Part shown: one piece after another, positions 18,311 through 62,003 of the stretch
Numbering within the stretch: position 1 is the first letter of the stretch
Layout of the letters: each line of letters begins with the position of its first letter
Assembly (NCBI GenBank): GCA_023853785.1
Contig: JAJIRX010000842.1
Location: 53,423 to 117,422 of the forward strand
Direction: 5' to 3'
From: Psilocybe azurescens
Taxonomy: Eukaryota > Basidiomycota > Agaricomycetes > Agaricales > Agrocybaceae
Length of the DNA: 64,000 bases
Program-made: the position numbers and the translations under genes
The notes under the pieces: generated by a model
What the model saw: the letters and a program-made list of their open reading frames with translations, nothing else
Databases searched by the model: none
Told to the model about the DNA's origin: nothing

Positions 18311-19125
18311 TTATAGTAGAGCTTTCAAGATTTCTGCAATATCCGTGTCGAATTCTTCTGAATCAATGATTTTCTGTTGTAGTTCAGTGTCGATTAGATT
18401 GACAAAGAGTTCCTCTGGTAATAGAGTCACATCTTCGTTATCGTGGTCTTTGTCCAGTATGAAATCTGGTCTTCTGGATAAGGCATCAGATTGAATCATT
18501 TTCGTCCCAGGCATGTGGATCAGTTTCAGATCGAATTGGGATAGGAATAATGACCATCGAGCTTGCCGTCTGTTCAGATTTCTTGGGCTTCTGAAATAGG
18601 TCAGGTTTTGTGATCAGAATGAATAATTGTTGTATGTTCAGATCCTTGAATGTAATGTCTCCATTCCTGTAATGCTCGTACAATTGCCAGGAGTTCCCGA
18701 TTGTAGATTTCGTAATTCCTTTCTGTTGCGGAGAAGGTTTTGAAATGAATGCGCATGGGTGTCTTTCGCCGTTACCATTGAGTTGAGTCAGAATGGCTCC
18801 AGATGCATATTTAGAGGCGTCGCATTCGATTTGAAATGGTTTGCTTGGGTCTGGCATAGAGAGAACTGGTTCTTCCGTGAATCGTCGTTTTAGTTTGTCG
18901 AATGCTCGTTGAGCTGCGTCCGTCCATTCAAATTTCTTGTCCTTCTTTAAGAGATTGTTCAGGGGTTGTGCCACTGTAGAGAATTTCCTGATGAATTTTC
19001 GGTAGAAATTTCTGAATCCCAGGAATCCCCTGACTTGCTTTACTGTAGCGGGTGCAGGCCAGTCTCGGATTCCTTTAAGTTTCGATTGGTCCATGGAGAT
19101 TTTCCCTTCTTCGATTATCATTCCC
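18311..19125 (-). pseudogene. pol: Chromovirus RT connection and RNase H, frameshifted
   Basis: It begins with the conserved connection motif VRGFLGFRNFYRKFI and continues into RNase H with IECDASKYASGAIL, containing the first catalytic Asp. Near 18,740, after KPSPQQ, the frame shifts. The rest of RNase H (..HSDHK..) runs in another frame to PGTKMIQSDALSRRPD, the usual end of Ty3/gypsy RNase H. Confidence 0.85.
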
Positions 19126-19129
19126 AGGT

Positions 19130-19735
19130 ATTCGACTTTTCGTTGTCTGAAGACACATTTTCTGGTTTGAGGTATAGGTCGTTATCCTTTAGCCTTTGCA
19201 GGACAATTCATTTGTATCTTGCCAAATCTTCTTGATTTTTGGCAAAGATTAGGATGTCGTCCATGTAGATGATCACAAACCCTTCAGAGATTTTGCCTTC
19301 GAACAGTGAATCCATCATGGATTGAAAAGTGGCCGGGAATTGCATAATCTGAAGAACATAACTGTGGGTTCAAAGAGTCCTCGATTCGTTTTGAAGGCAG
19401 CTTTCCATTGATCTTCCTTTTGAATGTGAACATTGTTATACCCTTGTCTGACATCCAATTTGGTAAAGAATTTTGCTCCTTTGAGTTTGTCCAGTAGATC
19501 GGGGATCCATTGCAAAGGGTAGGCATTCTTTACTGTCCATTCGTTCAGGTATCGATAGTCTTGACAAGGTCGCAGTTTTCCGTCTTTCTTGGCTACAAAG
19601 AAAAAGGCGATGTGATGTCCAATTCTGATTTGACAATATATCCCTTGTCCAGCATTTCTTTGAGAAATTTGTCCTGTTCGATTTGTTCTTCCGGGGTGAG
19701 GCTATAGACCTTGCATGGTTTCGGTTTGAACCCAG
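19130..19735 (-). pseudogene. pol: Chromovirus reverse transcriptase, frameshifted
   Basis: RNA-directed DNA polymerase domain. Visible blocks are the LTPEEQ-like start near 19,700, the palm segment [16 protein letters not shown] (about 19,470-19,420), and the catalytic YMDD box at 19,256-19,267 within FVIIYMDDILIFAKN. A frame change near 19,340 separates the palm blocks from the YMDD block. A second one follows the helix after YMDD, before the connection region. Confidence 0.88.
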
Positions 19736-33893: not shown

Positions 33894-34696
33894 TCATGTA
33901 ATTGATACTAGATTTCCAAGCTCTTTAAGTTGTTTTTCCCTCAGAGCGGATACTTCAATACATGCATGAGTTTGAGAAATTTCAAAGGTATTTTGGAAAG
34001 GGACTTACGGGATATATTGTGCCTATGCATATATACATACCACTCTGCCCAATCGTTCTCTGTCAATCGATAGAGCTCTCGATAGTCGTGGCACATGTGA
34101 GTTGCACCGGTTCGATGTAGATCAAAATCTCGCTGCGTGAAATCGCCCGGCTCAAGTGTAAGATCCGCAGAACAGAGTGTCATTTCTCGCAGGTAGTTGA
34201 GACAATGCTCTAAATGCTGGCGCTGAAGTTTCATCGGATAGTCCGGCCCAGAGGCGATGGCGCCTCGGAATATGCGCAAGCAATGAAGCTGGTGAAACAT
34301 TGAAATGGTGGAGTACTGGCGGTTGGGACCAAGTCGGAAGGTTCCTTCACCGTGCGGAGAGTCATAAATCCATTCATCGTGAGCCTCTTCGCCAACCACA
34401 TGATAGTGGACGCTTTCTTCGACTGTAACTTCCGCCGACTGCTTAAGCGTAATTGGCACTTCAAGTGGGTAATCGTCCCACGTGTAGCCTAAATGTACAA
34501 TCAACAATGAAGTAAACCGAGAATAAATCAAAGAAAGGTTCTTATACGCACTGTATTTTCTATTTTGCATCATGGAGGCTCCGTTTACCGAGTTAGTTGT
34601 ATCGAAATAGACAGATAACAGACTCCCTGTAAAAAGAACTGAAGAGATGGCACAAAGGAAAACCAGAATGCTCGAGGTTGTCTTCTGAGACTCCAT
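33894..34696 (-). CDS. UstYa/DUF3328-family oxidase-like protein 1
   Basis: UstYa-type proteins carry out oxidation or cyclisation steps in fungal peptide and other secondary metabolism, and carry two HxxHC motifs thought to bind metal. The start ATG opens a cytosolic tag and one membrane helix (SILVFLCAISSVLFTGSLL). An intron then separates NRKY from SYTWDDYPLEVPI. Both motifs are present: FHQLHC (HQLHC) and RQHLEHC (HLEHC). The conserved tail ends ..RLTENDWAEWYVYMHRHNIS. Unspliced, the frame ends at 33,941. A strong donor GTAAGT at 34,008 with an acceptor at 33,953 (56 nt) would instead add a hydrophilic tail ending at a TGA at 33,894, which I prefer. A second family member lies at 40.5-41.2 kb, and a GNAT gene and a small secreted peptide lie between them. 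Confidence 0.82.
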
Positions 34697-35122
34697 GCCT
34701 GTGTTGGGGAATGGTAAAGATGAGAAAGTATTCGCTCTTTACTTCCCTGATAGCGCTGACAGGCTATACACAGCGCGGAGGTGAGCCGGGAATAAATTGG
34801 CCAGCCACCGGGGGGAAAATGCGGTTTGGCCCCGCTCCGAACGCAACGTCCGTCCTGGGGTTCCATTGCTATCAGACATAATTAGCACTCGCTGCGGGTT
34901 TTAAGACGAGATTAAAAGTGCATGCACAGCCGGATATGAACCCGAACTGGAAGACTCTACCAGATAGTCGAAGAAGTCCAGAATTTTCGTGGTATGGAAC
35001 TGCATCGGAGATCCCGAACCGAGATTTTGTGTCTATCATGGTGTTTTCCATTTCTGAGCGAACTATCATTACATCTCAGTAGCTAAGGAAAACGAGTTCC
35101 CATGGTTGTACGCTTGAAAAAA

Positions 35123-40537: not shown

Positions 40538-41166
40538 TCAACGAGTGGAAGGAAACTCACAACCTGTTCCGATAATCCTGTTTTGATTTCTCTCCACCTC
40601 CGAGTATACGGCTTGCCAATCTTCACAGACCATATAGTCCGCTAAGGCGTCGGCGTCAGCGTACGTATCAGCACGACATAGAATCATTTGGCGAAGGTAG
40701 CTCAAGCAGTGTCTTGTAAGCTCCGACGTGGCCAGCTCTTCTCTGCGTACAATAGATTGACGAATAATGTCGATGCAGCGAAGCTGGTGAAACATTGAGA
40801 TGCTGTATGGCTCGTTTCTCTCTCCAAGATAAATGGTGCCATTTCCAGGAGAAAGGGAACCCCATTCAAGTTCATCGTCTAGTCCATAATGTAGGGTGTG
40901 AGGTTCGTAGAAAAGCAAGACTTTAGGTCTTTTCTGAATCGGCCAAAGCCGAGGGTAGTCATCACCAGAATATGCTAATGTCACTTAAGATATGATATCG
41001 CTCTCAATGAATGAATAAACTCACTGTACTGTTCCATATTCTGCGGGGATGAGACCTTACTAGTAGGGTTGAATTTAAGTATTGATAGTGCAAGCATTGT
41101 TTGAGATATCGTCAACACAACTAACACGGTATTAAACCGCATATTGTGAAAGGAGTCGAAGAGCAT
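40538..41166 (-). CDS. UstYa/DUF3328-family protein 2, degenerate HxxHC motifs
   Basis: A second member of the family encoded at 33.9-34.7 kb. The likely start is the ATG at 41,166 (MLFDSFHNMRFNTVLVVL..), with a membrane helix VLVVLTISQTMLALSIL. A 50-nt intron (41,024-40,975) joins MEQYT to YSGDDYPRLWPI, the usual block before the catalytic part. The two motif positions read FHQLRC and ELTRHC: the second His of motif 1 is Arg, and the first His of motif 2 is Leu. Only one of the two paired His is therefore left in each motif. The frame ends at 40,538 just after a GTGAGT that could be a further donor, so the C-terminus is uncertain. It may be a non-catalytic relative. Confidence 0.75.
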
Positions 41167-42954: not shown

Positions 42955-44377
42955 ATTGCGGGGGTGATTGCCACCAAATCAAAATGTTCCATTCTTTTTA
43001 GCATGTTTTAGTTGAATAGTAGTACAATCGAGCAGCCTAAATTTCTGGAAATGGTACATAGCCTCTGCTTTTGAGCCCTCTTACAGTGGCCAATGAATCG
43101 AGATTTAGGGCCTCGACCAAGCTTCGCCTGAAACCAACCACTTTCAAGCTGCGGCACCCAAACCAAGTTGTACTTATTACTGTTGTTTCGAAAGTCACCA
43201 CATGGCATAATAAATGGGTTACGTCACACTTCAAGCTTCAAGCGTTATGCGAATAATTTACACGATATCGTGGTGGCCTCAGAGTCTACTTATATGTCCC
43301 ATTGCTCCCATCTGTTCCCATCTGCATAATGACCGCACAATATTGGCACAACACATTGCTTATATTTCTTAATCTTCTAATAATGTCTTTCGGCAAGCAT
43401 AATCAAGTAAGAAAGACCGATATCTGAAGAGTTAAGTATGTCGACACACCACTCTAAGGCTGTAAGCAAGCTGTGAGTTCGCCTGTAAATTTGCATGGAA
43501 CCGTTAAGTGGTCCGAGCCAAGGTTGTCCGGCCACAACGTGGGAATTTTCTATGGTACATAATGCATAAGGATTGTTCTGTTTATTGTCTGTCTTTATCC
43601 GTCGTTCTTTTTCTTCTGCCACATCAGACTGTCCTCTTCCTCCCGAGTTCTGCTGTAAAAAAAAATCTTATCATCCCGTTCGCTTTCATTTAATTTCAAG
43701 TTCTCGCCATAATTCTCGGAACGTCAATCTGTCGAAGAATTGCTGGGCCATCGTGGAGTCTAATGCCCTTTAAATGCTCTCTAAAAGCATACGACGTATA
43801 TTATGTATATGGTATCAGCATCGTCCTCGATGTCTCACACCTCAAGCAAATGTGGAAACTTATAGACGGTATCATAACCCCTCTAAATCTCTGCTAGCAT
43901 GGGTCAACTCCACCTAGGCGACTAATATAAAAAATCAAACACAATAAGATCTCACCAATCTAGCAATTATTACTCACTCGTCGCCAGTATATAGATCCCG
44001 AGGATACCTCTTATCATCTTGTATTGCAGATATCCTACGGTTCCGCGTAGTTCCGCATCTCTTGGTGTCTTATTCTGCGCACGAGCATCACACGTTCAGG
44101 ACTAGCTGTCATATTATTCTCGGTGCGAGACAATAACGACGGCGTAAATACTAAAGGTTATCCCACTCGGCCGTGATATAAATACTCCTTTAAGCCGCTG
44201 CTATTGTGAGATTACCATGCTCGGAACTAAAGTCGACGTCTGGCGGGGAGAATAAATAGGCAGAGCTCGCAGTAGCGATGGATTTCTTTAGGACTCTCTT
44301 TTGCTGTTCTCTCTTTCGCTTTCTTCGCCTTCGCGCCCTCTTTTGTTGATATTCTCAACTAAAAAACTTTCCTCATC
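42955..44377. other. Intergenic stretch upstream of the pheromone gene
   Basis: No convincing coding frame. The last part should be the promoter and leader of the pheromone gene. A TATA-like AATAAATA lies at 44,251-44,258, followed by a pyrimidine-rich leader (CTCTTTTGCTGTTCTCTCTT) up to the ATG at 44,378. Confidence 0.45.
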
Positions 44378-44530
44378 ATGGACGCTTTCTTCGCTCTCTT
44401 CACTGCCTCTGGCTCCTCATTCACCGTCGCCTCTACCGCGTCGAACGTACAGGAGAAAAGTACAAGCTTTGAAGCCGTCGAATACGAACGAAACGGAAGC
44501 GCCGGCAACGCTTACTGCATCATCGCCTAG
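44378..44530 (+). CDS. Mating-type-like lipopeptide pheromone precursor (50 aa, CaaX)
   Basis: Basidiomycete mating pheromones are made as short precursors without a signal peptide. They are farnesylated on the Cys of a C-terminal CaaX box, trimmed and cut after a charged pair about ten residues upstream. This 50-codon frame fits each point. The start is MDAFFALFTASGSSFTVAST, the processing region contains EYERN, and the end is ERNGSAGNAYCIIA followed by TAG, so the CaaX box is CIIA. The predicted mature peptide begins after ER and would be about nine residues ending in a farnesylated Cys. The ATG context is CATCATGG. No pheromone receptor (STE3-like) gene was recognised within the window, so this may be an isolated pheromone gene or the edge of a B mating-type region. 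Recognition rests on the overall pattern, which is highly characteristic. Confidence 0.82.
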   Translation: MDAFFALFTASGSSFTVASTASNVQEKSTSFEAVEYERNGSAGNAYCIIA

Positions 44531-45388
44531 GCGTATGATGGCACCACACCACCAGTATACCCTTTGCACGACATTAAGAACACGCCAATGCATTTATATC
44601 GTAAGTCTTCTTTTCTCATCTCATATTATTCTTACTGATCATCCTCATCTTTGCACTTACAGCATCTACACACTTGTAGCATCTTACATCACGCATTCAG
44701 CATACACCAATCATCCATAGCATCCCCCTCACGATCAGCACATCACCAACCCATTTCTTTACATCAATCGGCATCCAGCCCGTGACTTCATTCATTCAAG
44801 CATCATTCACGATTATCCAATTGCACAACCCATACAGTCACTCCTTCATCACGGCGCTACCCCATCACGCTCACACCCACGCATCCACCCGCACCTATAC
44901 AATTTTCGTTCACATACCCAATCTCTGCTCTTGCCTGAAAAGTATCTTATTGCAGAGTTTATTTTGGATAACTTTATTGTTAATGGTTCGTACTAATAAC
45001 TGGTCGAATCGCAATATGCTCAATCAAATGCCGATGAAAAGGCGAAATTCCAAAGTATACTGTAAATGGTTCTTGAATATTTGATCAGTCAATAAGTGCA
45101 ACTCGATGACAAGGTACTACTTGTATCTCTTATACCGTCCCCAAATCCCCTTCTATCTTCAACGCACTTTTATCCTAGCCAGTAGTATCGCGACATTTAT
45201 TGTCGCTACCTAGATAACCCGTCTCTAGACGTCAATGAGGGGAGGGGGGTAGGGGCCGAGCATTGCCCTCTTACAAGTGATACCACCATTATGCCTGTTC
45301 TTATACCCAAAAACATTCAGTATTTTTTTATCTAATGAGACATCAGGAATTGAAATGCTGTAGCATCATATTAGCGTATTAGTGTCTC
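44531..45388. other. Downstream region of the pheromone gene, no recognised gene
   Basis: The longer plus-strand frame overlapping the pheromone gene (44,301-44,720) continues into this stretch but looks like a compositional shadow (Ser/Thr/His-rich). Another short frame at 44,782-45,084 lacks family resemblance. The segment should contain the pheromone 3' UTR. Confidence 0.35.
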
Positions 45389-60142: not shown

Positions 60143-61528
60143 ATGGTCGCCGTCGCAGGCGACGTTGAACCTTCCTCAATGCCTTCTGAAACTGTTGATA
60201 GTCGTCGTCTTGTTGGCGTTCTCGCTGAACGTGTTACCAATGTCTCCAGTAACGACTTTCCAGGGCATTACCCCGGTGAAGATCACTCATGGGATCTGAC
60301 AAATTTCCAAAAGGTACGTCGGGTCGGTTATCTCTGATGAAGTATTTTCATCGAATAAACTGCTTTTGCAAGGGCAGAATTTGACAGTAAAAGTACAACG
60401 GCTATCGCAGCACTCAATAGACTTTGATATTGTGGGAGTGGATGCGTCAATAGCCAATGCCTTTCGAAGGATCATGATTGCTGAAGTTCGTGTTTCTCGT
60501 TTCGTTGGATGTCAGACTTTTTACTTGACTTTCTTGTTAGGTACCCACTGTGGCCATCGAGCAGGTCTTTGTGTGGAACAACAACACCGTTATTGTGGAC
60601 GAAATTCTGGCTCACCGACTAGGACTTGTCCCGCTGAACGTAGATCCCTCGCTAATGATTATGAAAGGTCTGTTCGTATGCTTCTATAATTGTGAATAGA
60701 TCTGACTTGCATTGTAGGTCCCGATGACCCGCCAACCGACCAAAACACCCTCGTCTTCCACGTCGATATCACCTGCGAGCGTAACCCAAAAGCGCCAAAA
60801 GGCACACTCAACCCCCACGAATTGTACATCAACTCCGAATTTCTATCTTCACAGCTCACCTGGACACCGGCTGGCGAACAAGAGGAGGTTTTCGCTGATA
60901 ATAAACCCGCGCCTACGAATTCGAACATCGTTCTCGCGAAACTGCGACCTGGGCAGCAGATCAATATGGAGCTGCATGCGGTGAAAGGCGTTGGAAAGGA
61001 TCATGCCAAGTTCAGCCCCGTTGGTGCGTTTTGCAGTCTCTTTCTCTCCATTCGTATTCTAATATTACTCGCTCAGCGACGGCATCGTACCGTCTACTCC
61101 CTCAAATCAAAATCACCAAGCCAATACCACCGAGCAAAGCGGAGAAATTTCAAAAATGCTTCTCGCCTGGTGTAATCAAAATCGACCCGCGAACGCAAGA
61201 GGTCAGCGTCGACGAGAAGAACGTGCGGAACGATACCGTCAGTCGGGAGGTGCTGCGGCATCCTGAATTCGCCGGTTCAGTGGAGCTGAGCAGAGTGCGG
61301 GATTACTTTTTGTGTATGCTTTATTTGACTCCTTCGTCGTGTCAATCTCATTCGTCCTTTCTTCGTTTAGTCAACGTGGAATCTGAGGGACCGTATGCTC
61401 CGGAGCGTATATTGCCTGAGGCTATAAAGGTTATGCGCGAAAAGCTGGCCGTTATACGTCAAGCAGCTGAGACGCTACGGGATAAATCTACAACTATTGA
61501 TAGCGATGTCGTCATGGCAGACTCATGA
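60143..61528 (+). CDS. RPC40: RNA polymerase I and III subunit AC40/RPC40
   Basis: The alpha-like subunit shared by RNA polymerases I and III, which pairs with AC19 to start enzyme assembly in the nucleus. Six exons: 60,143-60,313, 60,378-60,485, 60,541-60,667, 60,718-61,023, 61,077-61,313 and 61,371-61,528. All joins are in frame, for 368 residues, close to the usual 335-370. Family blocks are [40 protein letters not shown] with E then [45 protein letters not shown] followed by [21 protein letters not shown] and [20 protein letters not shown]. The ATG at 60,143 (TCCATGG) is chosen because the family N-terminus fits. A later Met (MPSET) is possible. The gene is intact and is the best housekeeping anchor in the window. 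Confidence 0.95.
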
Positions 61529-62003
61529 TTTGTACTTTTTTTTTTCTTTCTGTATTCCATTCACCATTTCTTTCTCGACATGCTCTGTAGTTCCTGAACC
61601 CGGTGCACAAATTCGTACCTCATTGATTCGTCTTGTCTGCATGCTGGGTAAGCCTAGAAAAGAACGGTTTAATTTGCAGACGCTCTAGCTGGCTCGATTT
61701 CTTGCCTTTCCTGACTCTTAAATCTCGGTGATACACAGATAATAGAATTCAATGTCACTTGGTGAATACTTAGTTGAGTCTGAACTTATGAAGGGTTACT
61801 GATGTAACCATTTTTGCAATTCGCGTCTGCTACCAATCGCACGTGGTCCCCGACATCTACCGTGACGGTACACTTATTCGCGCGGGTCAATCAAAATTAG
61901 CGGTCCCACTGAGCTTGTAGTCAACGCCAGCTCTTACTTGACTTTTACACCACTTTTCCTGGCTGTCTACTGACTTTAAACATTGAATATAACATTCTAC
62001 ACC
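61529..62003. other. Intergenic stretch downstream of RPC40
   Basis: Holds the RPC40 3' UTR, including a long T run near 61,537, and the probable promoter of the decayed F-box gene. No coding frame is recognised. Confidence 0.35.

What the first reader, a model, noticed from the sequence alone, without database searches (positions are those of the whole stretch)
44378..44530. Unannotated lipopeptide mating-pheromone precursor gene with no receptor gene in sight
The 50-codon frame has all the marks of a basidiomycete pheromone precursor: no signal peptide, the EYERN processing region, a nine-residue predicted core and the CaaX box CIIA at the stop codon. Such genes are usually missed because they are short. 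The window shows no STE3-like receptor: the nearby seven-TM protein at 41.7-43.0 kb is of another family. Either this is an isolated pheromone gene outside the B locus, or the locus continues beyond the window. The core NGSAGNAYC may be a new specificity.
Basis: partly seen in the sequence, partly recalled or inferred. Interest (0 to 1): 0.8.

Follow-up and report, generated by a model that had tools for sequence, protein, structure and literature searches.

The report
Mushroom pheromone-like peptide gene, probably non-mating
This small gene is very likely real and encodes a lipid-tailed pheromone-like peptide, but it belongs to a known and strongly conserved mushroom peptide family that lies away from the mating-type genes and whose role is still unknown.

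Summary
Window 44378-44530 (+) encodes a 50-residue precursor with MDAF start, EYERN, a G-rich core and CIIA at the stop codon. A profile of 64 public relatives scores it 26.6 bits; the best of 30 randomised windows scores 10.3. Eight paralogues lie on six other contigs; over the last 14 codons pN/pS is 0.18.

The interpretation needs changing. None of the 43 listed STE3 receptor matches of the genome is on this contig; two other contigs carry receptors together with diverged pheromone genes, like a B locus. [quoted passage not shown] Its core differs from the commonest sibling core NGSGGNAYC by one residue, Gly to Ala, seen in 0 of 118 public relatives ending in a CaaX box and 0 of 8 siblings.

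So it is a new member of a known kind; a new mating specificity is not supported. Most novel reading left open: this peptide family supplies ligands for the orphan non-mating STE3 receptors. Expression, processing and allelic variation could not be tested.

The parts
44378..44530 (+). coding frame of the 50-residue pheromone-like peptide precursor, stop included
   Evidence: profile score 26.6 bits; eight paralogues
44378..44389 (+). MDAF start motif, shared in form (MD-x-F/Y) by the nine family members
44486..44491 (+). Glu-Arg pair, presumed processing site (7 of 9 members have ER, 2 have ET)
   Evidence: processing role is taken from the literature, not tested
44492..44518 (+). predicted core NGSAGNAYC
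   Evidence: the exact cleavage point is a prediction
44516..44527 (+). CaaX box CIIA, presumed farnesylation signal
44601..44662 (+). [quoted passage not shown]
   Evidence: score 7.0; 1.8% of 5000 random stretches reach 6.5; no transcript seen. Not class-specific: B-locus genes show candidates too
44253..44258 (+). TATA-like word TAAATA, 125 bases before the ATG (a second one at 44179-44184)
   Evidence: the window gene lacks the stricter TATAA[AG] form that 7 of 9 members have

Best explanation
The gene encodes a precursor of the non-mating-type, pheromone-like farnesylated peptide class of Agaricomycetes (about 85% likely). Shown here: the frame, its place in a nine-member family with a conserved core, and the absence of a receptor gene on its contig. 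Inferred from the known pathway of CaaX pheromones: the Cys of CIIA is farnesylated, the last three residues are removed and the Cys is methylated; the N-terminal part is cut near the Glu-Arg pair; a lipopeptide of about nine residues (NGSAGNAYC) leaves the cell without a signal peptide. Most likely (inferred, about 50%) it then signals through one or more STE3-type receptors encoded elsewhere, in growth, hyphal self-sensing or development, rather than setting mating type.
For: Precursor anatomy at the stated place. Eight paralogues on six other contigs with closely similar cores. Pooled pS 0.70 and pN 0.12 over the last 14 codons in 36 pairs: synonymous sites have drifted, the peptide has not. 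122 distinct public relatives listed, with named sources in ten agaric species. Published description of such peptides in Agaricus bisporus, scattered and at best loosely linked to mating type, with consensus cores in C. cinerea and L. bicolor and 3' UTR introns in transcripts (PMC8305134, passages). No STE3 match on this contig or on the six contigs with siblings.
Against: No transcript or peptide was seen. PF08015 does not hit the window gene: 0 families at E up to 10, and it is not among the 6 matches of the genome search. The paralogues were found by similarity in this very region, which lowers pN by selection of the sample. Only 11 of 118 public relatives have ER/EH before the core, so the processing site is not a constant of the class. 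Receptor and function are unknown; [quoted passage not shown]
Confidence: 0.75

Rival explanations
1. It is a true B mating-type pheromone that has moved away from its receptor and still acts as a mating-specificity ligand.
For: It has the ER pair and CaaX box of B pheromones, and a residue (Ala at -5) not seen in 118 public relatives or 8 siblings.
Against: Its core groups with the conserved class and not with the six diverged precursors found on C777 and C800; no STE3 match on its contig; one copy found in an assembly that holds two B-like contigs, although an allele could have been missed because the short allelic contigs do not reach this place.
Confidence: 0.08
2. It is a prenylated small protein that stays in the cell and acts at a membrane, not a released peptide.
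For: A CaaX box alone does not prove export; no signal peptide was seen by eye; no receptor pairing is known; secretion was not tested.
Against: Conservation lies in the start motif and the C-terminal core, while length and sequence of the middle vary, as in pheromone precursors. In 52 of 118 public relatives the core occurs twice in one chain (40 of 122 by a stricter rule), which suits release of a short peptide.
Confidence: 0.1
3. It is a decaying or silent family copy, or a chance frame.
For: It carries a private change at a nearly constant position and lacks the stricter TATA word that 7 of 9 members have. No transcript data.
Against: Frame and motifs are intact; the profile score is far above that of randomised windows; pN is well below pS in each of its eight pairs.
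Confidence: 0.07

Closest known systems
[quoted passage not shown] it cites Niculita-Hirzel et al. 2008, not read)
   Same: Short precursor with MD[S/A]F start, charged pair, G-rich core ending in AYC, CaaX box, scattered loci, candidate 3' UTR intron.
   Different: Core NGSAGNAYC instead of GGGSGNGAYC or GGGSGNNAYC; nine loci found here against four in A. bisporus.
B-locus mating pheromone precursors (here: six on C777 and C800)
   Same: MD-x-F start, ER pair, CaaX box, candidate 3' UTR intron.
   Different: Those lie on contigs with STE3 receptors and have other, variable cores; the window gene does not.
Rhodotorucine A precursor of Rhodosporidium toruloides (PMC3068285, passages)
   Same: Several public relatives of the window gene carry two core-CaaX units in one chain, as that precursor carries tandem units.
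   Different: The window gene and its eight siblings have one unit; sequence relation to rhodotorucine A was not tested.

Membership tests
[quoted passage not shown]
[quoted passage not shown]
   NGSAGNAYC; profile score 26.6 bits against 10.3 for the best randomised window; consensus
[quoted passage not shown]
   ER at -10/-9
[quoted passage not shown]
   none of 43 listed STE3 matches on C723; linkage beyond the contig unknown
[quoted passage not shown]
   candidate at 44601-44662, score 7.0; no transcript; B-locus genes show candidates as well
[quoted passage not shown]
   one copy found; short allelic contigs do not reach the locus
B-locus mating pheromone | Beside a STE3 receptor gene | tested here: not met
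B-locus mating pheromone | Variable core, unlike paralogues | tested here: not met
B-locus mating pheromone | Multiple diverged alleles | tested here: inconclusive
Pfam PF08015 (Pheromone) | Match to the model | tested here: not met
   0 families at E up to 10; not among 6 matches in the genome. The sibling on C809 reaches the cut-off only with its neighbours in the frame
Farnesylated pheromone (any class) | Farnesylated, methylated peptide released and bound by a receptor | not testable with these tools
   needs mass spectrometry and receptor assays

The most novel reading that the evidence does not exclude
The nine-gene family to which the window gene belongs, with its strongly conserved NGSGGNAYC-type core, supplies the ligands of the orphan non-mating STE3 receptors, forming a self-signalling system common to agarics that works beside the mating system; the window copy with Ala at -5 would be a variant ligand.
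Probability: 0.18. Interest if true: 0.65.

Novelty: new member of a known kind. Interest (0 to 1): 0.33.

Why it matters
The non-mating STE3-like receptors of Schizophyllum are described as orphans (PMC8161036, passages), and the function of such receptors in Agaricomycetes, and whether they bind pheromones, as unknown (PMC8305134, passages). A genome with nine such peptide genes, conserved cores and receptor genes on separate contigs makes the pairing testable with a few synthetic lipopeptides. The gene is also a further case of a short CaaX gene that a standard model misses: PF08015 does not hit it.

Tried and rejected
B-locus gene: rejected as main reading because no STE3 match lies on the contig and the core is of the conserved class. 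Chance frame: rejected. Segmental duplicates: about 10 kb on each side of the window gene and of the C809, C484 and C529 copies share no similarity outside the peptide genes (blastn E up to 1e-3, blastp of frames E up to 1e-3); the other five sibling loci were not compared. Pheromone response words (ACAAAG or reverse) within 600 bases upstream: 3 of 9 family members, not the window gene, and 2 of 6 B-locus genes, so uninformative. 3' UTR intron as class marker: rejected; a score of 5 or more is reached by 5 of 9 family genes, 5 of 6 B-locus genes and 17.8% of random stretches, and 2 of 9 family genes gave no candidate. TATA words: one search printed positions offset by 400; one search gives the right ones. 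The 10-kb DNA search did not list even the window itself (4 of 5 candidates scored), so it is used neither for nor against an allele. A two-core public precursor as query found only the one-core siblings. The receptor genes on C457 and C551 were looked at in frames but not modelled; the stretches were fetched and not analysed. No structure prediction was run. Unused: one protein search, one paper search, three genome searches.

Full report
What was checked. The window is the right-hand 64 kb of contig C723 (117,422 bases) of a 70.4-Mb fungal assembly of 937 contigs. It is the only frame of the window that fits an ER/EH motif plus terminal CaaX box; 200 first-order Markov windows give 0.05 on average, or 0.005 with the MD-x-F/Y start required (the pattern was written after seeing the gene). 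A profile of 64 public one-core relatives, with none from this genome and without the near-identical Psilocybe cyanescens protein, scores the frame 26.6 bits; the best frame of 30 randomised windows scores 10.3. The relatives had been collected with profiles that included the window gene, so this control is strong but not fully independent.

Family in the genome. Protein searches find nine loci: C723 (window), C809, C484, C529, C214, C651 and three on C479 within about 15 kb. A public two-core precursor finds the eight siblings and not the window gene. These searches score only the best candidates, so nine is a lower bound. All nine end in a CaaX box. Over the last 14 codons pooled pS is 0.70 and pN 0.12 in 36 pairs, ratio 0.18: the DNA has drifted, the peptide much less. 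The loci were found by similarity in this region, which biases pN downwards. Seven of nine have ER before the core and two ET. The commonest core is NGSGGNAYC (5 of 9); the others are NGSAGNAYC (window), NGCGGNAYC, DGSGGNAYC and NGDSGNAFC. Each of the nine has a TATA-like word within 200 bases upstream, against 1 of 6 B-locus pheromone genes and 14.6% of 10,000 random stretches; with the stricter TATAA[AG] it is 7 of 9 (not the window gene) and 1 of 6. This was noticed afterwards and is not an independent test.

Receptors and the B locus. STE3 (PF02076) gives 43 matches in the genome, exon by exon, on C777, C800, C457, C551, C434 and C776, and none on C723 or on the six contigs with siblings. 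C777 and C800 carry several receptor matches each and, between them, six pheromone precursors with other cores; they look like two B haplotypes. A 1.5-kb stretch of the window (60500-62000) also has copies on C90 (99%) and C724 (100%). Both facts suggest an assembly from a dikaryon (inference). The window gene was found once, but C90 and C724 are under 19 kb and, if colinear, do not reach it, so allelic divergence could not be tested.

Relatives elsewhere. Two profile searches list 122 distinct public relatives (57; 147, of which the best 120 are shown). Of the 122, 118 end in a CaaX box. At -5 from the Cys these 118 have G 103, S 10, T 3, P 1, N 1; the window's Ala is in none of them nor in its eight siblings. 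Only 11 of 118 have ER/EH near the core, 66 only an acidic pair, 41 neither. The sibling on C214 differs from the C-terminal 37 residues of a Psilocybe cyanescens protein at one place (compared by eye), so the host is probably Psilocybe or close to it.

Two-core precursors. Of the 118, 52 hold two core-CaaX units in one chain by a loose rule, 23 of these with identical ten-residue units; a stricter rule gives 40 of 122. The window gene and its siblings hold one. Tandem units are known for rhodotorucine A in a basidiomycetous yeast (PMC3068285, passages). Two searches of the paper library for tandem pheromone precursors listed no paper whose title or abstract reports them in agarics; the library lacks most subscription papers, and the rust and red-yeast papers were seen only in the listing.

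Comparison with what is known. PMC8305134 (passages only) describes four precursor genes in Agaricus bisporus, unlinked or at best loosely linked to mating type, at least three expressed with an intron in the 3' UTR, and three of the four peptides resembling the non-mating-type consensus of C. cinerea (GGGSGNGAYC) and L. bicolor (GGGSGNNAYC). PMC4101180 (passages) reports four similar precursors in Pycnoporus cinnabarinus that resemble presumed non-mating-type peptides.

Verdict. The farnesylated-peptide mechanism is inferred from the known pathway. Receptor and role are unknown; a ligand role for the orphan receptors is the most novel reading not excluded.

Noticed in passing
Public relatives among P0002-P0123 (e.g. 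P0002, P0003, P0074, P0095): Many relatives carry two core-CaaX units in one precursor (52 of 118 by a loose rule; 40 of 122 by a stricter one). The inner unit is followed mostly by H, Q, R or K after CVV[A/S], which poses the question of how the inner Cys could be prenylated.
   Followed up: partly
C777 and C800 of the same genome (L001-L003, L006-L008, L013-L016, L018): Two contigs with several STE3 receptor matches and pheromone precursors each, apparently two B haplotypes of a dikaryon.
   Followed up: partly
window 33944-34738 (-) and 40541-40984 (-): Two frames match UstYa (PF11807; 53.7 and 41.8 bits, cut-off 25), a family known from modified-peptide pathways. No peptide precursor for them was sought.
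   Followed up: no
window 60500-62000; C90:11745-13246; C724:5839-7338: Stretch with an RNA polymerase Rpb3/RpoA insert domain match present three times in the assembly at 99-100% identity.
   Followed up: partly
window 18489-19181 (-): Reverse-transcriptase RNase H domains (PF17919, PF17917), a retroelement remnant or copy.
   Followed up: no
C479:344777-360061 (L029, L031, L033): Three family members within about 15 kb, a local cluster.
   Followed up: no
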